Shown here: one piece after another, positions 34,147-52,076 of the stretch
Layout: every line of letters begins with the position of its first letter
Numbering within the stretch: position 1 is the first letter of the stretch
From: Falsirhodobacter deserti
GTDB lineage: Bacteria > Pseudomonadota > Alphaproteobacteria > Rhodobacterales > Rhodobacteraceae
DNA: 64,000 bases
Assembly: GCF_004015795.1 (NCBI RefSeq)
Contig: NZ_ML137218.1
Coordinates: forward strand, 1,711,811 to 1,775,810
Direction: 5' to 3'
Translations under genes and position numbers: made by a program
Notes under the pieces: model-generated
Database searches by the model: none
What the model saw: only the letters and a program-made list of their open reading frames with translations
Told to the model about the DNA's origin: nothing

Positions 34147-35479
34147 GAGAGTGTCCGAGCTTCTGTGTATTCGTGATGTGGTCCATGCTTCCTGAGAGGA
34201 GCAAGGCTGATGACGATTTCGAACGAATTGCTGGACGAGCTGCTGAAGGGCTGCAAGCGGCCTGACGATCTGCTTGGCGAGGCCGGGCTGATGAAGGAGC
34301 TGAAGATCCGTCTGATGGAACGGATGCTCGGGGCCGAACTGACCGCGCATCTGGGCTATGAGGCCGGTGCCGAGGCCCCGCCGGAACAATCCAACCGCCG
34401 CAACGGGATTTCAACCAAGCGGGTCAAGGGTTCGGATGGCGAGGTGCCGCTGTCGGTTCCGCGCGACCGGGATGGCAGCTTTGAGCCTGAGCTGGTGAAG
34501 AAGGGTCAGACCCGGATCGACGGGGTGGATGACAAGATCATCGGGCTCTATGCCGCCGGTTTGTCGGTGCGCGACATCCAGTCCCATCTTGAGGATCTGT
34601 ATGGCCTGCGGGTCTCGCCCGACCTGATCAGCCGCGTGACCGATGCAGTTCTGGACGAGGTGCGCGAGTGGCAGCACCGGGCGCTGGACCGGATGTATCC
34701 GATCGTCATTTTCGACGCGCTCAGGGTCAAGATCCGCGATGCCGACAGTCGGATGGTCAAGAACAAGGCGGTCTACATCGCCCTGGGTGTCACCAGGGAT
34801 GGGGAGCGCGAGGTCCTCGGACTCTGGATCGCCGACAACGAGGGCGCCAAGTTCTGGCTGTCGGTGATGAACGAACTGCGCAACCGGGGGGTTCAGGACA
34901 TCCTGATCGCGGTCGTGGACGGCCTGAAGGGCTTCCCGCAAGCCATCACAGCGGCCTTCCCGGATACCACAGTTCAGACCTGCATCGTTCACCTGATCCG
35001 GCATTCGATGAACTTCTGCAGCTGGAAGGACCGCAAGGCCGTGGCCGCCGATCTGCGCCCGATCTACCAGGCCCCGACGGCGGAGGAGGCCGCCCGACAG
35101 TTGGACGGGTTCGAGGAGAAATGGGCCGGGAAATACCCCTCCATTGCCCCGGCCTGGCGCCGGGCCTGGGCCGAGGTGATCCCGTTCTTTGCCTTCAGCG
35201 CAGCGATCCGGAAGATCATCTACACCACCAACGCCGTGGAGTCGCTGAACCGGGTGCTGCGGAAGACGCTGAAGACCAAGGGCTCATTCCCCACCGAGGA
35301 GGCCGCGACCAAGCTGATCTACCTGGCCATCCGCAACTTCGAGAAGGGCGGTCGTGCGGTTCGTGAATGGGTTGCGGCCCGCAATCAGCTGGCCATAATG
35401 TTCGCCGGGCGCTTCGACGCCTGACTGTATCTGAAAACCGTATGGGCCCCGTCAGATACACAGAGTTTCAGACACTCCC
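34147..35479 (+). mobile_element. IS256-family element, copy 1 (intact)
   Basis: 1333 bp. Left end GAGAGTGTCCGAGCTTCTGT and right end (reverse complement) GGGAGTGTCTGAAACTCTGT are imperfect inverted repeats. It is flanked by the 8-bp duplication GGGCCCTG and carries one intact transposase gene. It sits inside orfB of the IS3 remnant and encodes the same protein as the copy at 43975-45307. Confidence 0.92.
34210..35424 (+). CDS. IS256-family transposase (copy 1)
   Basis: 404-residue mutator-type transposase. The DDE residues are in IVIFDALRVKI (Asp), IAVVDGLKGFP (Asp) and TTNAVESLNRVLRK (Glu), and the C/HxxH-like region QTCIVHLIRHS lies between. The N-terminal region includes LMERMLGAELTAHLGYE, typical of the family. 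The frame is complete and identical in sequence to the second copy, so it is probably functional and recently moved. Confidence 0.96.
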   Translation: MTISNELLDELLKGCKRPDDLLGEAGLMKELKIRLMERMLGAELTAHLGYEAGAEAPPEQSNRRNGISTKRVKGSDGEVPLSVPRDRDGSFEPELVKKGQTRIDGVDDKIIGLYAAGLSVRDIQSHLEDLYGLRVSPDLISRVTDAVLDEVREWQHRALDRMYPIVIFDALRVKIRDADSRMVKNKAVYIALGVTRDGEREVLGLWIADNEGAKFWLSVMNELRNRGVQDILIAVVDGLKGFPQAITAAFPDTTVQTCIVHLIRHSMNFCSWKDRKAVAADLRPIYQAPTAEEAARQLDGFEEKWAGKYPSIAPAWRRAWAEVIPFFAFSAAIRKIIYTTNAVESLNRVLRKTLKTKGSFPTEEAATKLIYLAIRNFEKGGRAVREWVAARNQLAIMFAGRFDA

Positions 35480-35487: not shown

Positions 35488-36283
35488 CGCTTCGACCCAT
35501 CGGGCTACCCCTACAAATCCCGCCGAACCGGGCAGGCGGCTTTGGAACTGAGGATCAGGTAGTTTGCCAAACGCGGGTGCGCTACGGATACCGGCGTGTC
35601 CACGTGTTGCTGCGACAGGAAGGATGGCAGGTGAACATCAAGAAGACCCGACGGATTTACAACGAGTTGGGTCTGCAGCTTAGGAACAAGCATCCGAAGC
35701 GGCGGGTCAAGGCAGATGCGCGATGATCGCGCCGAGGTCGTTGGGCCGATGATGCCTGGGCCATGGATGTTGTCCATGACCGGCTGGCCCTGGGCAGCAA
35801 GCTGCGGATCCTGACCATCGTCGACACGCATTCCCGTCTTTGTCCGGCCGCGGACCCCCGCTTCACGTATCGCAGCGAAGATGTCGTGCGGACTTCAGAA
35901 CAGGTCTGCGCCCAGATTGGCCACCCAAAGACGATCAGGGTGGACGATGGCAGCGAGTTCATCGCGTGACCTCGATCTGTGGGCTTGCGTCAACAACGTA
36001 ACCCCGGACTTCTCACGTCACGGCAAGCCGACAGACAGCGGCTTCATCGAAGCGTTCAACAGCAAGCTCCGGTCTGCATGCGTGAACGCGCACTGGTTCA
36101 TGAGCCTTGCGAATGCGCGGGAAAAGCTGGGGTTGGCGTCGACACTACAACGAGGACGACCCCACAGCGCGATCGGGTACAATGTTCCGACCGCCTGCGG
36201 TATCCCGGCGACGCTCCTACGCAATGAAGTGATGCAATACGGACGACGAGATTCGCCAAAACTTTGGCTCTCATGCTCTCGCA

Positions 36284-36769
36284 TCATGTGCAAACCCACT
36301 CAAGAATCTTGCAGCTGCCGCCTGCCTCCTCGCAAACTGCCAAGGCTCCCTCTTCTGCCTCGCGTCTGGTGGGCGCAGATTTTGTAGCCCAAGGTGTGAT
36401 CTGGCTGACTGCACTGTCGCCGATGGCTAGTGCGCCGCAGTGATGATATGGAAATCCGGTATCATCATCATCACTCCAGTGACGATGATTACGAAAGACT
36501 TCGACCACCTTGCACGTCTCGCCACCGGCATTCCGACAGTGCTCGAATGCAATGTCCATCGCCTCCATACGCTTATCGGCACCCCAGAAAAATCCGTGCT
36601 TTTGGTCTAAGTCGGAGTAAGCGATTGCAGCCCAGATACCTCGTTCTTCTTTTTTTGGCTGAGACATCGGTGCTTGATCCACTGTCTGTAGCGCGAGCCC
36701 GCCAGCGATGCCCTCTCCGGCAAGGGTGACAACAAACCCCAATGCGCCAATAATAGGAACCAACTTCAT
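36284..36769 (-). CDS. DUF4189 domain-containing exported protein
   Basis: 161 residues from the ATG at 36769. A signal peptide (MKLVPIIGALGFVVTLAGEG...) precedes a DUF4189 domain with IWAAIAYSDLDQKHGFFWG and cysteines in HCRNAGGETCKVV and CEEAGGSCKILEWVC, probably forming disulfides. The family has no defined function and is found in periplasmic or secreted proteins. It is the last gene of the adhesin cluster, 19 bp after the unknown gene, and ends about 25 bp from the worn IS3 end. Base composition is clearly lower in GC than the core genes. Confidence 0.8.
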   Translation of the reverse strand: MKLVPIIGALGFVVTLAGEGIAGGLALQTVDQAPMSQPKKEERGIWAAIAYSDLDQKHGFFWGADKRMEAMDIAFEHCRNAGGETCKVVEVFRNHRHWSDDDDTGFPYHHCGALAIGDSAVSQITPWATKSAPTRREAEEGALAVCEEAGGSCKILEWVCT

Positions 36770-36788
36770 CTTCGAAATTGCCTTTCCA

Positions 36789-37469
36789 TTAATCCACAGA
36801 ATTCCTTGTCGACGCATAAGAAATCACAGTACACGAATTGCCACTCGGCAACAAAAGAGCATCACCACCGTTTTTACCTAGATAATAGACGGATATCTGG
36901 CCAAGATTATTGACGAGCTTGCTGCCATCCGGAAGCAAAGCGGGAATTTCCGTGCATGATGTGGAGAACGGCACCACTCTTATCATTGTGCCTTCGCAAG
37001 CCGAGGACGTTGGCGCAGCATACACAATGCCTGCAGCGGGGCCACTATAGCTGTCTGTTTTAAGATCCATACCGACGAATGCTTGAACCGCATGATCATT
37101 TGGCCGCTCGGCATTCCACGAAGATTGGATGCTATACTGTGAACCACTCGTAAGAATTTCACCTAGAGCAGGAAAAACAGTGGAACATGTACCAATGCCA
37201 GCTTCCTTGGAGTGTTGCGAGAATATCGATCCCTCCGATGCGTCTTGGGCATTGCTTGTTTCTGCGGCCGCTGGCTGTGAAAGAATGTTCGCAAATCTAT
37301 CATATTGCGTCACTGCATATGAGACGGCACCAGCAGATGCGGCTCCGAGCATAAACAATAGAGCCGGCTTCAGCCAATTCCGCTTGGGACCACGCGACTT
37401 AAGACCTTCTTCTGTGGTTGTAGCATCATCCCGCGCCATTGTCCTGCCAGGAGAATTTTTTTGATTCAT
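36789..37469 (-). CDS. Unknown single-pass membrane-anchored protein in the adhesin cluster
   Basis: 226 residues from the ATG at 37469. I recognise no domain. A basic cytosolic N terminus (about 35 residues, ending RGPKRNW) leads into one transmembrane helix (ALLFMLGAASAGAVSYAV) and an exported domain of about 160 residues. That domain contains four cysteines (GTCSTVF, SSACEGTM, STSCTEI, NSCTVIS) that could form two disulfides. The gene overlaps neither neighbour in the preferred start but lies 16 bp from the ialB-like stop and 19 bp from DUF4189. Low GC suggests transfer with the cluster. Confidence 0.7.
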   Translation of the reverse strand: MNQKNSPGRTMARDDATTTEEGLKSRGPKRNWLKPALLFMLGAASAGAVSYAVTQYDRFANILSQPAAAETSNAQDASEGSIFSQHSKEAGIGTCSTVFPALGEILTSGSQYSIQSSWNAERPNDHAVQAFVGMDLKTDSYSGPAAGIVYAAPTSSACEGTMIRVVPFSTSCTEIPALLPDGSKLVNNLGQISVYYLGKNGGDALLLPSGNSCTVISYASTRNSVD

Positions 37470-37485
37470 TGGAACTCTATCTCCA

Positions 37486-38061
37486 TCAATTGATGGCCTC
37501 AACGGCCTCAGAAAGCCCCTTAAGAGGCGCAGTTACGCTGATCGTTTTCCCATCTATGGTGGGATACGAGATAGTTGGTGCCGCATTTCTTGCGATCTGC
37601 TCACGCGTGATGGGTCCAACCGGCAGCATTCCCAGGCACACTGTCTGGTTGCACCCGTCGAATTCAATTTGAACCGGCTCACTACGACCTTCAAAAATGA
37701 AGGATATCAGGCCCTCAGTATTCGCTATTGGGGCTGTCCGAATGATCATGTACGGCCTTCCCTCATTCGTCGCGGCGAGTGACCAGCTAAAAACCATCTG
37801 TCCAGCTTGGTTCTCAATGATTTGGGTCACGTTGCAGATGCGCTGCCGCTTTTGAAGATCTTCATCGCAAATAAGGGTCCAGTTTTCGAATGGCCGAATT
37901 GTTCTCTCGTATTCTCCAATTCGCACATCGGATGGCACTGCAACCTCGGAAGGTCTGATGCGGAATCCAGATGATATTACCTCCTGTCCAGCGACGCCGC
38001 CGCTGGACAGGAAAAGGCCAAATAGCAAGGTGGCAATCCCGTGAGTTGTTCGCCTGATCAA
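37486..38061 (-). CDS. Invasion-associated locus B (IalB) family protein
   Basis: 191-residue exported protein with a signal peptide (MIRRTTHGIATLLFGLFLSS). The IalB domain is seen in ENWTLICDEDLQKRQRICNVTQ, with paired cysteines, and later CNQTVCLGMLPVGP. IalB of Bartonella is linked to erythrocyte invasion; environmental members have no known role. It starts 7 bp after the adhesin stop codon, so the two were probably co-transcribed before the IS insertion. Confidence 0.87.
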   Translation of the reverse strand: MIRRTTHGIATLLFGLFLSSGGVAGQEVISSGFRIRPSEVAVPSDVRIGEYERTIRPFENWTLICDEDLQKRQRICNVTQIIENQAGQMVFSWSLAATNEGRPYMIIRTAPIANTEGLISFIFEGRSEPVQIEFDGCNQTVCLGMLPVGPITREQIARNAAPTISYPTIDGKTISVTAPLKGLSEAVEAIN

Positions 38062-40949
38062 CTTGTCCTCAATTCAGGGTAAAGCTCACACCCAAGCCGA
38101 CCCCATAGTCTCCATCAGCGGCTGTACCCGAGAGGTTAGCACGAACGCGACCGTCTTCGCTGGTATAGCCTGCACCAAAGGCTATCGCGCTCTCGCCACG
38201 CCAGCGCCCGCCGCCCATAGCCACGCTCACCTTGCCTGGACGGTCGTCGTAGCGGAGTGATGCAGCCGCCAAGCCAATCGCTGCCGCCGTACGTGCCTCT
38301 GAGCGGACTTCTCCGAGTTGCTGGTTAAGCTGACTGAACCTTTGATCCGTGTAATTATTGGCAGTTGTGACAGCATAATCGATACGTTTATCCGTGTATC
38401 CATTAGATGTCTCAATGGCATAATCGACACGATTATCTGTGTAGGATTTGGCTTCTTTGGAGTGTTCCGTAAGCTGCGCGACATTAACAGCATCTGTGTC
38501 TTTGACGCCTTTGCCGACATTGGAAATGACGACCGGAGCGTTGACGTCGCCACCAACGAGGGTAACACTGTTTTTCTTATTACCGTCAGGATCAAGATCG
38601 TAGAAAACTGCGTTATTGTTCACGTTTCCGACGTTGGTCTGTAGATCCTCGATTGCCGTGTTGGTGGCGTGAAGCTGGGAGCCATTGATAGCGTCGGTGC
38701 TGTTTGCTGAAACGCGACCAGCCGCCACATTTGTGATCGTTCGTTCTGCGCCATCTGTGCCGACGCTGACAGTGCCGACGGGAGCCGTGCCGGCGAAGTC
38801 GTAGCTTTTTCCATTGATGGTGGTGCCAGCAGTCCCGACAGCATTATCCGTTACAGAACCCGAACCCAAGGCAACGTCATTGGCATTGTTGGCTTGCGCG
38901 CCCTCCCCCAGTGCAACCGAACTCTGCCCTGTGGCAGTTGAGCCGTTGCCAGCCGCCAAGCTGCTCGTACCGCTGGCGACGCTTTCCGGACCGATCGCAA
39001 CACTATCCGTTCCGGTCGCAGAAGAATCCGCTAGACTGGAGTTGGCATGGAAGTACTTTATGCCGCCTCCGCCGTTGATCTGGTTATTCATGTTCGTCAG
39101 GCTGTTATCCACCGCCGTAAAGCTGTCATAGATGGTTGTGTAGCTGCCTCCTTGAATGTTGTAAGTGGGGCCGCTGATCGTGCCATCCGAATTAACCACC
39201 GACCCGCCACCAAGGTGATTTGTAATCTGCGTGCCGAGGCCCTGCAGCTGACTAACGTTTACGGCATCGGTTTCCGCCGAGCCGGCAGCCACGTTCGTAA
39301 GCTTCCGCTCGGAACCCGCGGAACCGAACGAGACCTCTCCAACTGAAGTCTGGGCCGTAGCAAGGGCAAACGCCGCATAGCCGCTTTCAGCGCCCACAGA
39401 CGTGACTGAGGACGAGCCAATCGCGACGCTATTGATGTGATCGCTGGCAGCTCCTGCACCAAGCGCCACCGACTGGATCCCGTTGGCCCTTGATTGTGTA
39501 CCGATTGCAACGCCATCGGCCAGCATTACCTGCGCCCCCTGGCCAATTGCGGTGCCGCCTAGGGCGAGCTGATCGACAACCGCGCCATTGCCGATGCCGA
39601 TGCCATTGTCGCCGTTGACAACGGTCGTCGGGCCTACAGCGATGGACTCGGCTCCGGCTGCAATTGAATCTCCGGCTGTCGAGTTGGCATGGAAATATTT
39701 CGACGGGGACCCCGCAATGGAACCGATAGCGCCCTGAAGCTGACGCACCGTGACCGCGTCCTGGGCGTTCGTACCATCGGCGACGTTCGTGATCTGCCGG
39801 TAGGAAGTGTCTGTACCGACAGAGACTGCTCCCAGGAGAGCCTTGTCCGTCGTATTGTACTCTATGAAGCCCGTCGGACCGACTGCGATTTGTCCCGTAG
39901 TAGGCGCCAGGGCGCGATCGGAAACCGATCCCCATCCGAGCGCTACACCGCCATCGATGCTGACGTTGCTGTCACGGCCAAGCGAAAGCGAGCTGTCGGC
40001 CGAGGCGACAGCGTTATAACCAAGTGCGCTGGAACCGATGCCTTGTGCAAATGAATCGGTGACCGCCAATGTCCTGTCGTTGGTGCGGACATACCGGATG
40101 CCGTTACCATTCGCGTCGGTGTAGGTTGTCGTCGTGTCACCGGCGATGTCGTTGATGGTATCGCCGATGTCAGTGATGTCTCCGCCCAGGTTCGCGATAT
40201 CCGAAGCGTTTTTGGTGATATCAATCTTGTTCTTCGTGACCTGTTGGTTGGTGGCGAAGAGCTGCGACCCGTTAATCGCGTCGGTCGAGGTGGCGGTGAG
40301 GCGCCCTGCCGCGACGTTTTGGATCTGGCGCTCTGCTCCCGCCGAACCGATGGAGAATGCGCCAACCGGCGCACTGCCGGCGAATGTATAGCTCGTACCC
40401 CCGATAGTGGCGCCTGCGACCGCGCTCGTCGCACTCGATTCCGTATTGAAACCGATCGCCACGTCACCCGCATTGCTGGCCACCGCGTTCGGACCGATGG
40501 CAACGGAGTCCGATCCGAGAGCCTGGGAATCCGGCAATGTCGAGTTGGCATGGAAGTACTTGATACCACTTCCGTTATTGATGTCGCCGATCGTGTTGCC
40601 GAGATTGGTGATGTTTGCCGTATTGGTGGCGATGTCGGTAGTGTTCGCCGTCACCTGCTGATTGGTGGCGAAAAGCTGCGACCCGTTAATCGCGTCGGTC
40701 GAGCTGGCGGTGAGTTGTCCCGCCGCCACATTGGTGATCGTGCGCTCCGCGCCCACTGCGCCGACGCTGACGGTGCTGGTCGGCACCGCTCCAGCGAAGT
40801 TGTAGGTGACGCCGCCGATCGTAGTGCTGGCGGTCCCGATGGCGGCGGCAGTCACCGAGCCCGAACCCAGCGCCACGTCGCCGGCGTTGATCGCAGTGGC
40901 TGTGTCACCGAAGGCGAGCGAGCCCGCGGCTAGCGCGCTGCTGTCGTTG

Positions 40950-42985
40950 CCGAGTGCGACCGAGCCCTGGCCGACCGCCACGTTGTTGTTGCCGATCGCA
41001 ACCGCGCCGCTCGCCATATTGGCTGCGGTCGCCGTCGCCGTGCCGTCGGCATTGGCGATGTTGTTCGCGCCGCCCGTGAAGGCGCCGGTGCCGCTGGCAT
41101 AGCTCGGATCGCCGATTGAAACCGCGCCGTCGCCATAGGCGGTGTTGTTGGAGCCGATCGAGACCGACTTGCCGCCTGTAGCGACCGCATTGGTGCCCAG
41201 CGCCACGGCTTCAGCCGTGTCGGCCGTAGCGTTGGTTCCCATCGCGATGGCATCAAGAGCGGACGCAGTCGCCCTGCTGCCGATTGCGGTGGCATTTTCG
41301 CCGCCAGCAACGGCAAGGACGCCAAGCGCGGTGGTGTTGGTTGCCGTCGCACTAGCCGTCCGGCCCACTGCGATCGACAGCGGCCCCGTGGCAACGGCCC
41401 GCGCTCCGATGGCAGTGCCACCAAGATCGGCCAGGCTTTCGGCACCCATGGCCGTTGACTCGAAGCCATGCGACTGCGCCGCCCTGCCGAGTGAGAGCGT
41501 GCTGTTCCCGTCCGTGATGCTGTTCAGGCCCAATGCAACGGAGGCAAAGTTTGTGGCATTGGCTCCGGTTCCTATAGCGACGGCGCTATTACCGTCGGTG
41601 GTGCTGCCGGTTCCGATTGCAACCGTCTGAAAGCCCAGGGCCGAGGCATTCGCACCCATGGCGGCTGTCTGCTGTCCATTTGCGACCGTCCTTGAGCCTA
41701 GCGCAATGGCATCGTCATTAGAGGCCCTAGCGCCAGCGCCGGCTGCGAGCGTGTTGATGCCGGTTGAGTGCGCGCCGGCGCCCAATGCGGTCGAAGTTGC
41801 TCCCGTGGCCTGTGCATTGACGCCAAAAGCTGCACCTGACAGCCCGGCGATAGAACCATTACCAACGGCGACGCCGTAGTTCTGGGACGCATTAGCCTGC
41901 CAACCGATAGCAACCGACGTCACCCCCTGCGATTGTGCTTGATATCCGATCGCAACAGCATTGCCGCCCGTCGCCGCAGCCCCAAAGCCGAGAGCTGTGT
42001 CATTTATGCTGGCCGCCGTGGAGCCGGCACCCAGTGCTATAGCACTCTGGCCCGAGGCCGCAGCAGATGGCCCAATCGCGATGGCGTTGACACCGCTCGC
42101 GCCATCGTTGTTGTAGTTCGGCCGCTGTGTACCGCTGTCGTTGATGCTGAGGTAATGCGGCGCCACGCCGTCCACCGCCGACTGCAGCGAATCCTGCACC
42201 GCAAACAGCTGGGAGCCGTTGACCGCATCCGTGGACATGGCGCTGATCCGGCCCGCTGCAACGTTCTGGATCTGACGCTCCGCGTCGACCGCGCCCACCG
42301 ACACCACACTCGTCGGCGCTGCACCTGCGAAGTTGTACGTTGTCCCGCGAATGGTTGTGCTGGCAGTCTGAACCGCGACCGATGTATTCGAGCCCATACC
42401 CAGCGCAACATCACCATTATTGCTCGCAGTCGCGCCAACGCCGAGCGCGACGCTGCGGGTGCCTGTAGCCGATGCCGAAGTGCCGATCGCAATCGCGCCT
42501 TGTCCGGATGCTGTGACACCTGTGCCCCACGAGTTGCCGATAGCGATGGAGCCCAAATTGGTTGCTTGGGCGCCGGAGCCGATCGCTACCGCCATCGTCT
42601 CGGCTGCGCCGCCGCCCGCCGCTTGTGCACCGGAGCCGATCGCAATATCAGCGCCAGCGGTGGCAATCGCCGCATCGCCGAACGCGAGCGCCCCTGCTCC
42701 GCCGGCGCGGCTTGTGTTGCCAAGCGCGACCGAACCTTGACCGACACTCACGTTGCTGTTGCCGATGGCGACGGCGCCTGCCGCCTCGTTTGCAGCGGTG
42801 GCGGTTGCTGTACCGTCAGCGTTGGCGAGGTTATCCGCGCCGCCGACAAACGCACCGCGGCCGCTTGCATAGCTGGGGTCGCCTATTGCGACCGCGCCGT
42901 CGCCGAAAGCAGTGTTGCCAGAGCCAATAGAAACTGCTTTTCCACCGGTCGCTGTCGCATTCGTTCCAATCGCAACGGCTTCAGC
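40950..42985 (-). repeat. Long duplicated head module within the adhesin
   Basis: Two copies of a roughly 90-residue block, about 1.77 kb apart (about 40950-41215 and 42715-42985), share GDPSYASG, NADGTATATAAN and VGQGSVALGN motifs in the same order, with substitutions. Further paralogous stalk blocks (GAERTITNVAAG, NGSQLFATNQQV) recur. This suggests growth of the adhesin by internal duplication. Confidence 0.7.
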
Positions 42986-43965
42986 GGCATCGGCGACCGC
43001 CGTGTTACCTAAAGCGACCGTGTTGTCAGCGCCGGCGTTAGCAGTGGTTCCGATCGCAATTGCGTTTGTGCCCGACGCTTGAGCCAAAGCAGAGATCGCA
43101 ACGGAGTTGATGCCGGTGGCAGCAGTATCAACACCGAATGTTAATGCATTGACGGCGTTGGCTGTACTGTCGCGCCCGATGGCTATGGCGCTCTCTGCGC
43201 TTGAGGAAGCGCGGTCACCCATCGCGATGCCGTCATCGGCCGTCGCCTCTGCGAATGTTCCCACCGCGACGGAATAATGCCCAGTTGCGTGGGCCGATCG
43301 GCCCAGTGCGGTCGCACTGAGCCCAGATGAAATACTGCCCCCACCGAGCGCAGTTGCATAGCTGTTCTCCGCACTGGCACTGATGCCGATCGCTACGGCA
43401 CCGAAGGCGCCGGATGCCGTCGCCGAGTTGCCCAATGCCACCGCACTCGCGCCGGTCACCTTGGTGTTGTAACCGATCGCCAAAGAAGCGCCGTCTCCCG
43501 TAACGCTCGAATTCAATCCCATTGCGATAGAATTCGCAGCGGCTGCGTTTGCACCGGGTCCAAAGGCTAACGCTTCACGTGCTGTGGCTTTACTCAGTCG
43601 TCCTATGGCGATGGCGTCGAATTGCGATGCGGTGACATCTGTACCGATGGCAATGGCACCCTGTCCTGAGGCCCCCGTTCCCGCTAGGGTGCGCGCCCCA
43701 AGATAGACCGAATTTACTCCGGACGCGATCGATTGAAAGCCAATACCAATCGCGTTTTGTTGACTGGCACTAGCGGTGGTGCCCTGTGCAATGGAATCTA
43801 CCCCGGCCGCCGTTGCTTGACTTCCGAAAGCTGAGCTACGTAGTCCGCTTGCATTGGACGCCCGACCCACGGCAGTTGCGAAATCTGCAGTGGCGTTTGC
43901 ACCCTGTCCAAGCGCAGTGGATGACAACCCAGACGAAAATGCGGCGTATCCGAGCGCCACCGCGT

Positions 43966-43974
43966 TGGTGAAGA
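43966..43974. repeat. Target-site duplication of IS256 copy 2, left
   Basis: TGGTGAAGA, repeated at 45308-45316 on the other side of the element. Nine bases. Confidence 0.88.
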
Positions 43975-45307
43975 GGGAGTGTCTGAAACTCTGTGTATCT
44001 GACGGGGCCCATACGGTTTTCAGATACAGTCAGGCGTCGAAGCGCCCGGCGAACATTATGGCCAGCTGATTGCGGGCCGCAACCCATTCACGAACCGCAC
44101 GACCGCCCTTCTCGAAGTTGCGGATGGCCAGGTAGATCAGCTTGGTCGCGGCCTCCTCGGTGGGGAATGAGCCCTTGGTCTTCAGCGTCTTCCGCAGCAC
44201 CCGGTTCAGCGACTCCACGGCGTTGGTGGTGTAGATGATCTTCCGGATCGCTGCGCTGAAGGCAAAGAACGGGATCACCTCGGCCCAGGCCCGGCGCCAG
44301 GCCGGGGCAATGGAGGGGTATTTCCCGGCCCATTTCTCCTCGAACCCGTCCAACTGTCGGGCGGCCTCCTCCGCCGTCGGGGCCTGGTAGATCGGGCGCA
44401 GATCGGCGGCCACGGCCTTGCGGTCCTTCCAGCTGCAGAAGTTCATCGAATGCCGGATCAGGTGAACGATGCAGGTCTGAACTGTGGTATCCGGGAAGGC
44501 CGCTGTGATGGCTTGCGGGAAGCCCTTCAGGCCGTCCACGACCGCGATCAGGATGTCCTGAACCCCCCGGTTGCGCAGTTCGTTCATCACCGACAGCCAG
44601 AACTTGGCGCCCTCGTTGTCGGCGATCCAGAGTCCGAGGACCTCGCGCTCCCCATCCCTGGTGACACCCAGGGCGATGTAGACCGCCTTGTTCTTGACCA
44701 TCCGACTGTCGGCATCGCGGATCTTGACCCTGAGCGCGTCGAAAATGACGATCGGATACATCCGGTCCAGCGCCCGGTGCTGCCACTCGCGCACCTCGTC
44801 CAGAACTGCATCGGTCACGCGGCTGATCAGGTCGGGCGAGACCCGCAGGCCATACAGATCCTCAAGATGGGACTGGATGTCGCGCACCGACAAACCGGCG
44901 GCATAGAGCCCGATGATCTTGTCATCCACCCCGTCGATCCGGGTCTGACCCTTCTTCACCAGCTCAGGCTCAAAGCTGCCATCCCGGTCGCGCGGAACCG
45001 ACAGCGGCACCTCGCCATCCGAACCCTTGACCCGCTTGGTTGAAATCCCGTTGCGGCGGTTGGATTGTTCCGGCGGGGCCTCGGCACCGGCCTCATAGCC
45101 CAGATGCGCGGTCAGTTCGGCCCCGAGCATCCGTTCCATCAGACGGATCTTCAGCTCCTTCATCAGCCCGGCCTCGCCAAGCAGATCGTCAGGCCGCTTG
45201 CAGCCCTTCAGCAGCTCGTCCAGCAATTCGTTCGAAATCGTCATCAGCCTTGCTCCTCTCAGGAAGCATGGACCACATCACGAATACACAGAAGCTCGGA
45301 CACTCTC
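43975..45307 (-). mobile_element. IS256-family element, copy 2 (intact), inside the adhesin gene
   Basis: 1333 bp, the same length as copy 1 and in inverted orientation. Ends are GGGAGTGTCTGAAACTCTGT (43975) and, reverse-complemented from 45307, GAGAGTGTCCGAGCTTCTGT. It is flanked by the 9-bp duplication TGGTGAAGA. The insertion splits the trimeric autotransporter gene. Confidence 0.93.
44030..45244 (-). CDS. IS256-family transposase (copy 2)
   Basis: 404 residues, identical in amino-acid sequence to the copy at 34210-35424, with the same DDE residues (FDALRV, VVDGLKG, NAVESLNR). The complete frame and identity between copies point to a recent duplication. The gene is co-oriented with the adhesin it interrupts, so read-through from the adhesin promoter may transcribe it. 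Confidence 0.96.
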   Translation of the reverse strand: MTISNELLDELLKGCKRPDDLLGEAGLMKELKIRLMERMLGAELTAHLGYEAGAEAPPEQSNRRNGISTKRVKGSDGEVPLSVPRDRDGSFEPELVKKGQTRIDGVDDKIIGLYAAGLSVRDIQSHLEDLYGLRVSPDLISRVTDAVLDEVREWQHRALDRMYPIVIFDALRVKIRDADSRMVKNKAVYIALGVTRDGEREVLGLWIADNEGAKFWLSVMNELRNRGVQDILIAVVDGLKGFPQAITAAFPDTTVQTCIVHLIRHSMNFCSWKDRKAVAADLRPIYQAPTAEEAARQLDGFEEKWAGKYPSIAPAWRRAWAEVIPFFAFSAAIRKIIYTTNAVESLNRVLRKTLKTKGSFPTEEAATKLIYLAIRNFEKGGRAVREWVAARNQLAIMFAGRFDA

Positions 45308-45316
45308 TGGTGAAGA
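45308..45316. repeat. Target-site duplication of IS256 copy 2, right
   Basis: TGGTGAAGA, identical to 43966-43974. Removing the element and one copy restores the adhesin reading frame exactly. Confidence 0.88.
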
Positions 45317-45752
45317 CGGCCTGCGCGCTGACGCCGATTGCAGTCGAGCCGCTCGCGCCGCTCGCCGTTGCCCCTGAGCCAACCGCCGTGCCGCGGACCG
45401 CCGATGCGGTAGCGTTTGCGCCGATCGCGACAGCGTCACCGCCAGTTGCCGAGCCGCCTCCGGCGGCGTACTGGGCATGCGCTGGCGCTATGGACCCGAA
45501 CGCTATGATCACTGCCAAGCTGCCGATCACACCGGTGGAGCTTGCTGATGATACAGCAACCGACCCGCTGCCGCCGCCCAATGTGCCAAGCCCAAGACCT
45601 TTGCGCCGGACTCCAAGCACCCGATGCGCCATGCGCAGGACAGCCATCAGCCGCCGCCGCTGCGAGGGAGTGTCGACAGCGCCTGGTATCCAGTTGCCTG
45701 CGAAACGGCGACGGGGCTTGTGCGAAGCGATTGTGCCGGACGTGTGACTCAT
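45308..45752 (-). pseudogene. Trimeric autotransporter adhesin, 5' part of the IS256-split gene
   Basis: About 148 codons. ATG 45752 has AGGAG eight bases upstream. A long basic N terminus (about 65 residues, many Arg) leads to a hydrophobic signal region (STGVIGSLAVIIAFGSIAPAHA), so the signal peptide is of the extended type seen in large autotransporters. Head repeats begin at once (GDAVAIGANATASAVRG). The frame runs into the IS at AVFT; across the restored junction it reads AVFTNAVALGYAAF. Confidence 0.9.
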
Positions 45753-46476
45753 TGCGATTTCTCCTGGAATTCCGCAGCGCTCAATGAGCCAACACCTGCA
45801 TCGGCTGCACTGGCACTCTCGGTGCTATTCTGTTTGACTATGCGAGCCCATTTCGATCATGCGACGTTCGACCGTTTCATATGCTAATGACTTGGGGAAC
45901 GGCATGAAGATCAATACGGGCACGCTCAGGCGACAACTGTAGATCGACCAGAGCGCGACAAAAAAATCAGATGCTCAGCTGGTTGTTTGTCGACCCAACA
46001 AGAGTAAATCAAATCGAAGACAAAAGAGCATACCGATGAATAAGCTCAGCCGAAGACAAATGTTCATCAAAGCAACATTCAGGGGCGCGCCAAGACGCTT
46101 CTGCCTTCGGAGCAAAGATATTGACGTCACGGGATGGGAAAGGGGTATCTGTCTTATGCCCGCTGGATGAAGCGGGCTTATCCTGAAGATGGATCGTGGC
46201 GCTTCCGTCGTGTGTCGACCGCAGTGCATCCAGAAGCACGGATCTTGGCAAGCGGCCTCGATCGGTGAATTTTTTAAAATCCCACCCAGTGTCGCTTGTC
46301 CATCTGTCAGCACCGACTGCTGATCGACTACATTATCCTGCACTTTACCCGATCACACCGCATCTCTCAGAGAAAAGGCAGAAAGCTCCAGTCTAGTCTT
46401 TGGACGAAATAACTATTTCTTGTCGATTCTCACCAAAGAACTATTTGTATAAAGTTGTGTTGCTTCTGTGCCACGG
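45753..46476. other. 724-bp region between adhesin and AraC gene, no supported gene
   Basis: The stretch next to 45752 must hold the adhesin promoter. The rest has low GC and only short, unrecognised open frames on both strands, such as a plus-strand piece with WMKRAYPEDGSWRFRR near 46170 that stops after about 35 codons. These may be degraded remnants. I see no RNA gene or strong hairpin. Confidence 0.4.
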
Positions 46477-47547
46477 CTAGCTTAGCAGTTTCCGGTAGTT
46501 AGCCGGGGTCACCCCCATCAGACGTTTGAAGATTCGGGTGAAGTGAGGCTGGTCGCCAAATCCGCTATCGACAGCGACCTGCTCGATAGGTCTGTCAGTT
46601 TGAGAAAGAAGATGCTGCGCACGACTTGTCCGACGTCGCAGTACGTATTGATACGGCGTCATCCCGGTAGACTTCTTGAATAATCGCGCAAAGTGACTGG
46701 GGCTTAAACTGTTTACTTTTGCCAAGCTGGATAACGACAAAGTCGTCCGGAGATTGGCTTCGATGTACTCGTTTAAGGTATTCATCTGACGCTGAGTGAG
46801 GCCCTCATGAACCCGTTCTGGCACAATCGTGGCCGTGCTGTGCTCAACTACGAGTCTGGCAGCGAACGTGCTAGCAAGCTGATCAACATAAAGGTGCGAG
46901 AAAGGCGTCGGGTTTTTTGCCGCATCAGATATAGCGATAGCGAGTTGTTCGAGGAGTTGATCCAAGACAGCGAATCTAGAAATGATTTCTATCTTGGAAG
47001 GATCGCCTTTGCCCAGTTCACCTGCAATCTCCTCGATGATTGCTTGCCTCACATATATCTGCAATGATTCCACCGGAACATCCGTTTGGCTATCAAACGG
47101 GACGCCTGCAGGAATGATGCCGAAACTTCCCGGCACAAACTCTTGTCTTCTTGGTATTCCGTTGATGGTACGACCAATGAATACCGGCCCACTCAAGGCA
47201 AAACTTACCAAGGGGTCATTACATTCTGCAAATTGGCGCTGATAAGGGGAAATCTTCTGACGTGAGACAAACGCACTTGTCCAATCCAGACTTTCACTGG
47301 TGATCGAGACTTCACTAAAATCTGCAACAGAAAAACCATGGGTTTCAGAACTTTTGAATATACGTCCATTTGGCGAGTCAGTAAAAACTGGCGAAACCGA
47401 TTGATCTTTCGTATCGACCGCAGCCAATGATCTTCCGGCCAATCGATGAGGCGAGTTACCCGTATTGCTGCTATCGAGAAACTGATTTTTCAGTCGATGA
47501 TTGATCCTGGAACCTCTGCGTTCCAGAACATCATTCCGATCATGCAT
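46477..47547 (-). CDS. AraC-family transcriptional regulator
   Basis: 356 residues. The C-terminal AraC/XylS domain is complete: LNEYIEANLRTTLSLSSLAK, SPSHFARLFKKSTGMTPYQYVLRRR, then PIEQVAVDSGFGDQPHFTRIFKRLMGVTPANYRK. The N-terminal part resembles cupin-type ligand-binding domains (QFAECNDPLVSFAL; RRQEFVPGSFGIIPAG). The effector is unknown. GC content is lower than the core, as for the adhesin-cluster genes, so it may have arrived with them. It is co-oriented with the adhesin cluster but about 720 bp upstream, so it could regulate the adhesin promoter; this is conjecture. Confidence 0.9.
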   Translation of the reverse strand: MHDRNDVLERRGSRINHRLKNQFLDSSNTGNSPHRLAGRSLAAVDTKDQSVSPVFTDSPNGRIFKSSETHGFSVADFSEVSITSESLDWTSAFVSRQKISPYQRQFAECNDPLVSFALSGPVFIGRTINGIPRRQEFVPGSFGIIPAGVPFDSQTDVPVESLQIYVRQAIIEEIAGELGKGDPSKIEIISRFAVLDQLLEQLAIAISDAAKNPTPFSHLYVDQLASTFAARLVVEHSTATIVPERVHEGLTQRQMNTLNEYIEANLRTTLSLSSLAKVNSLSPSHFARLFKKSTGMTPYQYVLRRRTSRAQHLLSQTDRPIEQVAVDSGFGDQPHFTRIFKRLMGVTPANYRKLLS

Positions 47548-48864: not shown

Positions 48865-50499
48865 TTAGGCAACCAGCATCCTGCCGTTCTCGATATGACG
48901 GCTGGCCAGCTTACGACCCATCCGGCCTGAGGCGATCGGGCGCGCCGCTTCGGCGATGAAGCCCTCCACCTCAAGCTCGGGGAAGAGCGTGAGGATTTCC
49001 AGACGGGCGTCCGCACTGACAGCCTTCAGCGCCTCCGGACCGGTGAACAGAGTTTCCGTTTCCGCGCCGTTGGAGTAGACGATCGCATGCCCATCCAAGA
49101 GGAAGTGGAAGTACTCCACGCCCGTGCAATCGTGCACGACATCAACTCCGTCGACCATCAGCAACTGCTTGGCGGCGACCAGAACTTCGGCGGCGCCAAA
49201 CATCCGGTGTGCGATGGCGGAGCGCACGAGGATCCTGTGCTGGGGCGAAACAACCAGATCGGTTTTCGGTGTTGCCTTGCCAAGAGCGCCGGCGACGATC
49301 CGGATGGGCAACAACTTCGGGTTCTGGCGCAGGTCATCATTTTCCAACCTGTTGCTGCCGATCCAACGAATTGCCTGACACCCCTTGTCTAGTGTTCGAA
49401 CGGTATCGCCCACCCGGAGAGTTTCGATGGGCACCGCTCCGCGATCTGTCTCGATCAGGGTGCCGCGTGTGAAGCATGTCACATTGATGGTTGCAAACGC
49501 CACATCGGTCGTTCCGCTCTGATCGCTGATCTCGTAGCTGAACGTTTCTTCGCCAAGAGTTCCACCGGGTTGGAAACCCAGCGAGCCGTCAGCGTTGAGT
49601 GTCACGATTGTTCCAGACACCAACGTCACGCTGTCACCGGGATTGACCGGCTGACCATTGATCTCGGTGATGGTCAGCGTTCCGCCCTCGCCGACGGTGT
49701 CGTTCTGCAGAACGTCGAGATTCTTGGTGTTGCTACGTCCGACACTGATCGCATCGGCGTAAGCAATAACTTCGGTCTGGACGCTATTTGCCGCGATCAG
49801 AAGGTTCGAGTCGTAGCTTGCATCGCCAGCATCCGCGATGCCGATGCTGATGGTATTCTCGACACCCGGATTGACAGGAGCCTTGAGCGTGAGGGTGATC
49901 GTCAACCCATCCATCTCAGTGTTGTACTGGCTCTGGGAGTTGTCGAGATAAAGGTTCTCATTACTGGGAACGCCGTTGGTTCCGCCATCTGTGATGTTAT
50001 CGATCGAGATATCGCCGCTTCCGATCGAGAGTTGGACTTTCTGGCCGTTGACGAAAATGCCGACAGCGTCGTTGAAGCCGCCGTTGACATATTCCGGATA
50101 CTCTTCCGACGAGAAGACCAACTGCATGGTCATCGTCGAGCCATCAGGGATGAAGGTCGCGTTCAGAATGGCACCGTCGAACGTGTCCAAGCCCGCGATC
50201 TGATCCAGAGCTGGATTGCCATCAACGCCGGCGGTGTTGGTGGATGTACCCGCCTGTTGGTTCGCATTATCGCCACCGGCGTTCGTGAATTTGCTCGCGT
50301 GCCCCGTCGACAGAATGATACCGCTGTCGGACGGCGTGCTGCCCGGCGATACCGTCTGCCCTTGGGTATAGATACCCTTGGAAGCGGCATCACCTTCATA
50401 GGTTGCCGATACAACGGTTATTCCCTTACCAAACATGGTTTGGGCGAGTTGGGTGGCATCTGCAGACGTATCCACCGGAAGCTGTGTTGCTTGGACCAT
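48865..50499 (-). CDS. Choice-of-anchor L and Hint domain protein
   Basis: 544 residues from the ATG at 50499, with AGGGA eight bases upstream; the longer frame to 50577 is unlikely. The N-terminal half has a choice-of-anchor L-type domain (ATYEGDAASKGIYTQG; GIILSTGHAS; LVFSSEEYPEYVNGGFNDAVGIFVNG). A short cadherin-like repeat (LDVLQNDTVGEGGTLTITEINGQ) leads to a C-terminal Hint domain (CFTRGTLIETDRGAVPIETLRVGD; VSPQHRILVRS). Hint folds are autoprocessing, as in hedgehog and inteins; this arrangement is common in Rhodobacteraceae surface or secreted proteins. There is no signal peptide, consistent with a type I export route, but no adjacent ABC exporter is present. Confidence 0.85.
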   Translation of the reverse strand: MVQATQLPVDTSADATQLAQTMFGKGITVVSATYEGDAASKGIYTQGQTVSPGSTPSDSGIILSTGHASKFTNAGGDNANQQAGTSTNTAGVDGNPALDQIAGLDTFDGAILNATFIPDGSTMTMQLVFSSEEYPEYVNGGFNDAVGIFVNGQKVQLSIGSGDISIDNITDGGTNGVPSNENLYLDNSQSQYNTEMDGLTITLTLKAPVNPGVENTISIGIADAGDASYDSNLLIAANSVQTEVIAYADAISVGRSNTKNLDVLQNDTVGEGGTLTITEINGQPVNPGDSVTLVSGTIVTLNADGSLGFQPGGTLGEETFSYEISDQSGTTDVAFATINVTCFTRGTLIETDRGAVPIETLRVGDTVRTLDKGCQAIRWIGSNRLENDDLRQNPKLLPIRIVAGALGKATPKTDLVVSPQHRILVRSAIAHRMFGAAEVLVAAKQLLMVDGVDVVHDCTGVEYFHFLLDGHAIVYSNGAETETLFTGPEALKAVSADARLEILTLFPELEVEGFIAEAARPIASGRMGRKLASRHIENGRMLVA

Positions 50500-50696
50500 C
50501 GATTTGTCCCTAGAGAAACTTGGGCAAGAGCACCCAGGGAGGAGCTCAAAACGCAAACGTGAACATAAGAAAATCAATTTGGTTAACTAGTTGAATTTGG
50601 GCGCTCAGCAGTTGCAGATGGGCAACTTTGAGAGTGCAGCCAGCGAGAGAGGAACCGTATTCGGGTGGACCAGTATCGGCTTTGTTTCATGAGCAG

Positions 50697-51132: not shown

Positions 51133-51242
51133 CGGCAATGTCCGTCTGGTGGGCCGTCCTGCATGCCGCGCGAAGCTGACGCCAAGCTGAACGCGCTGAC
51201 GCATCGTCGCCGCCGCCTGTTATGATGCGGAGCGGAGGCGCG

Positions 51243-51878
51243 TTGCGGTTATTGCTGATCGAAGACGATGAGAGCCTCGGCTCCGCCGTGCGGGACCAGA
51301 TCGCCTCGGACGGACATGTGCCCAACTCGGCGCGTGATCTGGCCGGGGCGCGGGACCATCCGGCGACGGTCGCCTATGACCTGCTGCTTCTGGACATGAT
51401 GCTACCCGACGGCGCCGGACTGACGCTGCTGCGCGACCTGCGGCGCAAGGGGGCCACGGTGCCGGTCATCATCCTGACCGCAATGGACCGCATCACCGAC
51501 CGCATTGGCGGGCTGAACGCGGGGGCCGACGACTACCTTGTGAAACCGTTCGACCTGTCGGAGTTGTCGGCCCGCATCAGCGCCGTCGCCCGGCGATATG
51601 CGGACAACCCGAACCCGCATCTGCAGGTGGGCGGTTTCGCGGTCGATTTGGCACAGCGGCGGGTCGAGCGGCCGGAGGGGGCAGTCGACCTCAGCCAGCG
51701 CGAATGGATCATTCTGGAGACGCTGCTGCAGAGTCGCGGCAGCATCGTCGCGAAAACGTGGTTGGAGGACCGACTATCTTCCTTTGATGCAGAGGTGGAA
51801 AGCAACACCATCGAGGTCTATGTTGGGCTGCGCCCACCTTGCTTTGCCCTTCGGATGACACAAGGTCATCCAAAGTGA
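51243..51878 (+). pseudogene. OmpR-type response regulator, C-terminally truncated
   Basis: The receiver domain is complete: LLLIEDDESLG at the start, the phospho-acceptor Asp (about residue 51) in LLLLDMMLPDG, the ILTAMDR and the DDYLVKPFD lysine. The winged-helix output domain begins (LSQREWIILETLL) and reaches SNTIEVYV, but the last part with the recognition wing (normally SRLRKKLG to GLGYRL) is replaced by about 18 unrelated residues. A TTG at 51243 with GGAGG upstream gives the family start; ATG 51222 is the alternative. No partner kinase follows. Confidence 0.75.
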
Positions 51879-51999: not shown

Positions 52000-52076
52000 T
52001 GGCGGACCCGGAGCGATTCGAACGCCCGACCCTCAGATTCGTAGTCTGATGCTCTATCCAGCTGAGCTACGGGTCC
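52000..52076 (-). tRNA. tRNA-Arg (anticodon ACG)
   Basis: The minus strand reads GGACCCGTAGCTCAGC at the 5' end and CGGGTCCGCCA at the 3' end, giving a perfect 7-bp acceptor stem and an encoded CCA. The anticodon loop CTACGAA has anticodon ACG, and the T-loop is GTTCGAATC. 77 nucleotides. It borders the accessory region on its right side. Confidence 0.96.

What the first reader, a model, noticed from the sequence alone, without database searches (positions are those of the whole stretch)
38069..45752. Giant adhesin gene inactivated by a clean, recent IS256 insertion
The trimeric autotransporter gene is interrupted at 43975-45307 by a 1333-bp IS256-family element flanked by the exact 9-bp duplication TGGTGAAGA. 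Removing the element and one duplication rejoins the two halves in frame (AVFT+NAVALGYA), giving 6342 bp, about 2113 residues, with signal region, head, stalk and complete anchor. The lack of any other lesion suggests a very recent event, perhaps selected in culture to lose an adhesive or aggregating phenotype, and one that could revert.
Basis: seen in the sequence. Interest (0 to 1): 0.72.

Follow-up and report, generated by a model that had tools for sequence, protein, structure and literature searches.

The report
Transferred adhesin operon silenced by IS256
A jumping gene has cut a giant stickiness protein in half in this bacterium, which is ordinary, but the gene belongs to a little-studied operon that appears to have come from root-nodule bacteria and shows other signs of decay.

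Summary
A 1,333-bp IS256-family element (43975-45307) with an exact 9-bp duplication splits the only trimeric autotransporter adhesin (TAA) gene found in this Rhodobacteraceae genome. The halves share one frame by arithmetic (2,113 codons) and neither has another stop. The element is identical to four other copies, so it belongs to a recent burst.

The context changes the reading. The gene sits in a cassette (AraC-type regulator, small gene, TAA, IalB-family protein, unnamed protein, DUF4189 protein) whose nearest relatives found are on Rhizobium and Sinorhizobium plasmids. The unnamed protein was found in 23 plasmid records, and all 23 carry TAA and IalB directly before it. The window's IalB and unnamed protein have no match in the six other genus members held.

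'No other lesion' holds for the TAA frame, not for the operon: the small upstream gene, open in 19 of 23 plasmid cassettes, is a remnant with in-frame stops here. The IS probably hit a cassette already losing parts. Culture selection and reversion are untested. The knock-out is ordinary. The transferred TAA cassette, of which I found only the TAA-IalB pair in print, is the more useful result.

The parts
43975..45307 (-). IS256-family insertion element (transposase reads in the same direction as the adhesin gene)
43966..43974 (.). left copy of the 9-bp target duplication
45308..45316 (.). right copy of the 9-bp target duplication
44030..45244 (-). transposase, 404 aa, PF00872
45317..45752 (-). 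5' piece of the TAA gene: start codon with AGGAG before it, signal region, one weak head repeat; as it stands the ORF runs into the element and stops at 45189 (187 aa)
38069..43965 (-). 3' piece of the TAA gene: head, stalk, membrane anchor; ORF 38069-43960, 1963 aa
37486..38061 (-). IalB-family protein (PF06776), 191 aa, next gene of the cassette
36789..37502 (-). third protein of the cassette: one hydrophobic stretch (read by eye) and a C-terminal part with four invariant cysteines; no Pfam or NCBIfam match
36284..36817 (-). DUF4189 protein (PF13827), last open gene of the cassette
45895..46149 (-). remnant of the small gene that precedes the TAA in 19 of 23 plasmid cassettes; in-frame stops here, none in the 19
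46477..47547 (-). AraC-family regulator in the position where 18 of 23 plasmid cassettes have one (26-35% identity only)
34147..35479 (+). second, identical copy of the element in opposite orientation with its own 8-bp duplication
35881..36387 (+). ORF with a transposase-type integrase core (PF13683), a remnant at the cassette's downstream edge; the label IS3-type is recalled
52000..52076 (-). tRNA-Arg; this tRNA lies beside the same histidine kinase gene in all 7 genus members

Best explanation
This is a loss-of-function insertion. An active IS256-family element, in the course of a recent multi-copy burst, landed about 148 codons into the genome's only TAA gene found. Translation from the native start now ends inside the element after 187 residues. 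The 1,963-codon remainder has the anchor but lies apart from the native start and signal region, so it should not be exported to the outer membrane. No functional TAA is expected. The gene is part of a cassette (AraC-type regulator, small gene, TAA, IalB, third protein, DUF4189) probably acquired from a Rhizobiaceae-type plasmid lineage and now in a variable stretch near a tRNA-Arg gene. The cassette was also eroding otherwise: its small upstream gene is a remnant. The IS is most simply a further step of neutral or mildly favoured loss. Shown: insertion, duplication, frames, copy identity, cassette homology, remnant gene. Inferred: lack of export, direction of transfer, order of the two lesions, absence of strong selection.
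For: Element, duplication and frames. Eleven full copies in the genome, the focal one identical to four others; 8 of 11 have their own 8- or 9-bp duplication, two share an outer 9-bp one as a pair, one has none. One YadA anchor in the genome; 17 of 394 sampled family genomes have one. In the genus the adhesin matches 2 of 7 genomes, this one and a partial match of 37% identity; the third protein and the IalB match 1 of 7 each, this one. Best plasmid relatives are rhizobial: TAA-IalB-third protein in that order in 23 of 23 records that hold the third protein, DUF4189 in 21 of 23, AraC-type in 18 of 23. Tree: window in one set with Rhizobium and S. meliloti rows, 100/99. GC 0.49 (regulator side) and 0.51 (downstream genes) against 0.64-0.65 for two chromosome stretches of the window. 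Remnant small gene.
Against: The adhesin frame itself shows no decay and the genes downstream are open, so the cassette may have been in use until the insertion; 4 of 23 plasmid cassettes have no match to the small gene, which may be dispensable. The order of the small-gene lesion and the IS is not dated. The window's exact place beside the Rhizobium and Sinorhizobium branches is unresolved, its end branch is long (0.38) and the tree is rooted at the midpoint only, so the donor is not identified. GC of the TAA gene itself (0.61-0.68) does not stand out. AraC similarity is at family level only.
Confidence: 0.85

Rival explanations
1. Reversible phase switch: the element goes in and out precisely, turning the adhesin on and off, as proposed for IS256 in the staphylococcal ica locus.
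For: Exact 9-bp duplication and unbroken frame on both sides. Passages of PMC4322838 recount IS256 insertion and excision in icaA, icaB or icaC of repeatedly subcultured S. epidermidis and an icaC insertion in subcultured S. aureus.
Against: No empty-site sequence from this species was available. The same review states that IS256 was never found within ica in 120 clinical isolates. The decayed small gene suggests loss, not a maintained switch.
Confidence: 0.08
2. Selected in culture: the isolate lost an aggregating phenotype on the bench.
For: Recent by identity of copies. Two of eight B. henselae isolates lack BadA by frameshift (PMC8859334, abstract and passages). In 3 of 23 plasmid records the TAA gene is split into two ORFs, so loss of this gene type may recur. 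Among ten sites tested, only the focal one and L094 have a frame open for over 100 codons on both sides, so hits inside long genes are not the rule.
Against: No passage history and no sister isolates. The element has spread to at least ten other places in the same genome, so no special selection is needed to explain one hit in a 6.3-kb gene. The three split plasmid genes may be sequencing errors.
Confidence: 0.15
3. Assembly artefact: a repeat copy was placed in the wrong spot.
For: Eleven nearly identical full copies exist, a known cause of misjoins.
Against: Both edges carry the same 9-bp duplication and the frames agree across the element, which a misjoin would not be expected to produce. 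The second window copy has its own matched 8-bp duplication, so the stretch between them is unlikely to be inverted either.
Confidence: 0.02

Closest known systems
Bartonella badA island with an ialB homologue directly downstream (PMC8859334, abstract and passages read)
   Same: TAA gene followed at once by an IalB-family gene; TAA expression lost by mutation in two of eight isolates; variable island.
   Different: There the losses are frameshifts; the 12 passages shown mention no third cassette protein, and the term DUF4189 occurs 0 times in the paper.
Brucella batA-ialB pair (PMC7688925, passages read)
   Same: TAA with IalB neighbour in the same direction; the authors leave the relation of the two genes open.
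   Different: Only the pair is described in the passages; the authors judged an operon not the likeliest explanation, while citing another work that calls the pair bicistronic. No sequence of that genus was fetched here.
YadA-like TAA of Rhizobium tropici CIAT 899 (PMC3557214, passages read)
   Same: Same cassette: plasmid record NC_020062 of this strain holds TAA-IalB-third protein-DUF4189 (L140).
   Different: In one ORF there. [quoted passage not shown]
IS256 insertions in staphylococcal ica genes (PMC4322838, passages read)
   Same: IS256 insertion abolishing an adhesion factor, with debate on natural reversal.
   Different: Unrelated host, polysaccharide not TAA; no reversal evidence here.
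TAA helper proteins SadB and TpgA (PMC3953254: search listing and start of abstract; TpgA: passages of PMC7688925)
   Same: Helper genes beside TAA genes, which is what the IalB, third protein and DUF4189 genes may be.
   Different: No sequence comparison with SadB or TpgA was made here.

Membership tests
IS256 family | Mutator-type transposase (PF00872) | tested here: met
   3.6e-124; similar plasmid elements are annotated IS256 family transposase
IS256 family | imperfect terminal inverted repeats and 8-9 bp target duplication (recalled as typical) | tested here: met
   25-nt arms, 80% complementary; 9 bp here, 8 or 9 bp at seven other full copies
Trimeric autotransporter adhesin (type Vc) | YadA membrane anchor at the C-terminus | tested here: met
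   PF03895, 3.2e-14, residues 1904-1961 of 1963 in the 3' piece
Trimeric autotransporter adhesin (type Vc) | head repeats and coiled stalk | tested here: met
   15 head and 7 stalk stretches in the 3' piece
Trimeric autotransporter adhesin (type Vc) | trimerisation and surface display | not testable with these tools
   needs protein work; expected absent in this strain
Rhizobial TAA-IalB-third protein cassette | gene order TAA, IalB, third protein, DUF4189, same strand | tested here: met
   window 43965 down to 36284 against 23 plasmid loci, DUF4189 in 21 of them
Rhizobial TAA-IalB-third protein cassette | open small gene before the TAA (19 of 23, so common but not universal) | tested here: not met
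   remnant with in-frame stops at 45895-46149
IS256 phase variation (ica type) | precise excision giving the open gene back in part of the population | not testable with these tools
   no population data

The most novel reading that the evidence does not exclude
IalB, the unnamed third protein (probably membrane-anchored) and the DUF4189 protein form a dedicated periplasmic assembly module for one clade of alphaproteobacterial TAAs, moved as a unit by plasmids even across orders. This window would be an experiment of nature in which the module stays open after its client has been cut, so it should decay next if it has no other client.
Probability: 0.45. Interest if true: 0.55.

Novelty: new member of a known kind. 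Interest (0 to 1): 0.35.

Why it matters
IS knock-outs of surface adhesins are common, so the insertion alone teaches little. What may matter is the cassette. Papers on Bartonella and Brucella note an IalB gene beside a TAA gene and leave the relation open (passages). Here a particular IalB type, a third protein without a Pfam or NCBIfam name and a DUF4189 protein travel with one TAA clade on plasmids, which turns the open question into a simple gene-removal test in rhizobia.

Tried and rejected
A second genome-contig scan with YidC served only to place the host in Rhodobacteraceae (best match 71%, a Gemmobacter sp. MAG; 80 of 582 relatives kept); the genus name was not obtained. A family-wide search with the whole adhesin gave no usable answer and was not repeated; PF03895 covers the question in part. 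Neighbours of other TAA loci in family and genus were checked at 10 loci covering 9 TAA genes of 9 of the 16 other positive genomes, up to about 1.5 kb on each side where the contig allowed: no IalB, third protein or DUF4189 match. A class-wide search with the third protein found it in 1 of 385 sampled genomes, this one. The structure of the third protein from its single sequence was too poor to use (mean pLDDT 41), so no fold search was run. A profile search of solved structures listed 6 sequences with E up to 1, the best PilA5 at 4e-4 over profile positions 41-118, which include the hydrophobic stretch; not taken as kinship. The nitrate transporter on the left flank has a strong match (E up to 1e-60) in only 2 of the 6 other genus members, so the left edge of the acquired stretch is not defined. 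A reading that many other copies of the element also cut genes was dropped: of nine other sites only L094 has a frame open over 100 codons on both sides; at six the shorter side is 58-79 codons and at two 51-52, which says little in GC-rich DNA.
Full report
Observation. The 3' half is open for 1,963 codons and carries 15 head and 7 stalk stretches and the anchor. The 5' half begins at ATG 45752 behind AGGAG. By coordinates the two halves share one frame and would total 2,113 codons.

The element. The genome (2.98 Mb, 7 contigs) holds 11 full copies, one copy with an internal gap (two rows), and one 65-bp match (14 rows). The focal copy is identical to four others; the remaining six differ by 1 to 27 bases. 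Eight of 11 full copies have their own 8- or 9-bp duplication, two share an outer 9-bp duplication as a pair, and one has none. This looks like a live, recent burst. Of ten sites tested for a frame that stays open on both sides, the focal one (at least 657 and 169 codons) stands out; L094 is next (177 and 130); at six others the shorter side is 58-79 codons and at two 51-52. A second identical copy lies at 34147-35479 in the opposite orientation; since both copies keep matched duplications, the segment between them has probably not been inverted.

Host. Names of the nearest YidC relatives place the host in Rhodobacteraceae. The five best plasmid matches of the element are in Paracoccus, 87-89% identical over the whole element; Pseudosulfitobacter records are the most numerous, 37 of 59. 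The species name is not given to me.

Is the gene shared by relatives? One YadA anchor was found in the own genome, and 17 of 394 sampled family genomes have one, this one included. In the genus, 2 of 7 genomes match the adhesin: this one, and one partial match of 37% identity. The third protein and the IalB match only this one of 7. All 7 keep the histidine kinase gene and a tRNA-Arg beside it (for six relatives, for the window). In the four relatives with 20 kb available the DNA beyond the tRNA has no match to the TAA end, IalB, third protein or DUF4189; one has an AraC-family match of 30%, one a weak nitrate-reductase-type match and a short match to the end of the window's response regulator ORF. 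The two other contigs end within a few kilobases.

Where it comes from. A tblastn search of 72,556 plasmid records finds the best relatives in Rhizobium and Sinorhizobium, the three widest covering 90-92% of the query at 57-61% identity (370 records match in all, 15 listed). R. leguminosarum Vaf10 shows the annotated order AraC - hypothetical - TAA - IalB - hypothetical - DUF4189, the order of the window. I took the gene without a family name (the third protein) as the probe: 23 records match. I fetched all 23 and tested the order by tblastn: TAA N-terminal region, TAA anchor and IalB precede it in 23 of 23; DUF4189 follows in 21 of 23; an AraC-type match precedes in 18 of 23 (26-35% identity, family level). 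The 23 are not independent: six S. meliloti records, two CCGE strains and two records of AB2/73 are near-copies. Ranked by coverage times identity, the first 23 records for the TAA end are the same 23 (47.7-78.8% identity); below them the listed full-length matches are at 41% or less, with two partial ones at 50% over 60% and 45% over 65% of the query (60 of 348 records listed). The IalB search gives 25 records: the 23 plus two Microvirga records where, by coordinates, the IalB match lies about 235 and 253 bp behind the TAA match. The DUF4189 search gives 24 records: 21 of the 23 plus two Pseudochrobactrum records (neighbours not examined) and one Ochrobactrum record with a TAA match about 1.2 kb away.

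A maximum-likelihood tree of TAA end, IalB and third protein (19 rows: the window and 18 of the 23 records; 740 columns; midpoint root) puts the window in one set with 8 Rhizobium and 3 S. meliloti rows at 100/99 support, with Agrobacterium and another S. meliloti outside. With GC of 0.49 and 0.51 on the two sides of the TAA gene against 0.64-0.65 in the rest of the window, transfer from a Rhizobiaceae-type source is the simplest reading. The TAA gene itself (0.61-0.68) does not stand out.

A second lesion. Rhizobial cassettes have a small gene between the regulator and the TAA. With the 139-aa product of strain CCGE532 as query, 19 of 23 plasmid loci match without a stop, the query's own locus included. 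The window matches at 46149-45895 (38% identity, E 4e-10) with two in-frame stops inside the match and no start codon at the matching place. The product has no Pfam match. The second IalB gene that follows the cassette in some annotated plasmids has no match in the window (three queries); an integrase-core remnant and the second IS256 copy lie there instead. So the cassette was losing parts by other means too. This weakens the argument that a single clean event struck an otherwise intact system, although the TAA, IalB, third protein and DUF4189 frames are open.

Consequence. As it stands the native start gives 187 residues, of which about 148 are native, and the remainder of the gene is cut off from its start and signal region. 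Loss of surface TAA follows from what is established for type V secretion; it is inferred, not measured. The downstream genes are open and may be transcribed, since the transposase reads towards them; this too is inference.

Loss elsewhere. In 3 of 23 plasmid records the N-terminal region and anchor lie in different ORFs (L133, L144, L146). They are described only. Sequencing error is possible.

Literature. TAA-IalB adjacency is in print for Bartonella and Brucella, with the relation left open (passages of PMC8859334 and PMC7688925). The R. tropici TAA is in print without characterisation (passages of PMC3557214). Plasmids of Ochrobactrum sp. LM19 with IalB-like proteins and a YadA-like adhesin are also in print (passages of PMC4447125). 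One search for papers holding both 'DUF4189' and 'trimeric autotransporter' returned 0; the listed titles (15 of 42; 12 of 43; 10 of 16; 3 of 3) include none on a TAA cassette with a third protein. Only this open-access library was searched. IS256 and adhesion switching: passages of PMC4322838, where natural switching is disputed.

Third protein. No match in Pfam (at E up to 0.001; a relative at E up to 0.1) or NCBIfam at E up to 0.1. Ten aligned members share 20 invariant columns, four of them cysteines. The hydrophobic stretch near residues 46-64 looks like one membrane helix (read by eye, not predicted by a tool). Its single-sequence model is unusable.

Verdict. Observation confirmed; interpretation partly supported. 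Interest is low for the knock-out and moderate for the cassette.

Noticed in passing
own genome, largest contig (place not given): Two identical copies of the same element in the same orientation enclose a short stretch that the operators withhold, with a shared 9-bp duplication outside: the form of a composite transposon. Not pursued.
   Followed up: no
window 48865-50577 (-): Choice-of-anchor L protein with Ig-like and Hint domains between the adhesin cassette and the tRNA-Arg; perhaps a secreted surface protein.
   Followed up: partly
window 51222-51878 (+): Response regulator with a cut C-terminal domain; its last residues match sequence beside the tRNA-Arg in three genus relatives, which suggests a junction of variable and conserved DNA near 51.8 kb.
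   Followed up: partly
L133, L144, L146: TAA genes split into two ORFs in S. meliloti BL225C, Phyllobacterium sp. A18/5-2 and S. meliloti Ak57, while IalB and third-protein matches behind them are present.
   Followed up: partly
own genome contig C3, about 154.2-155.4 kb: A copy of the element that has lost an internal stretch but keeps an 8-bp duplication.
   Followed up: no
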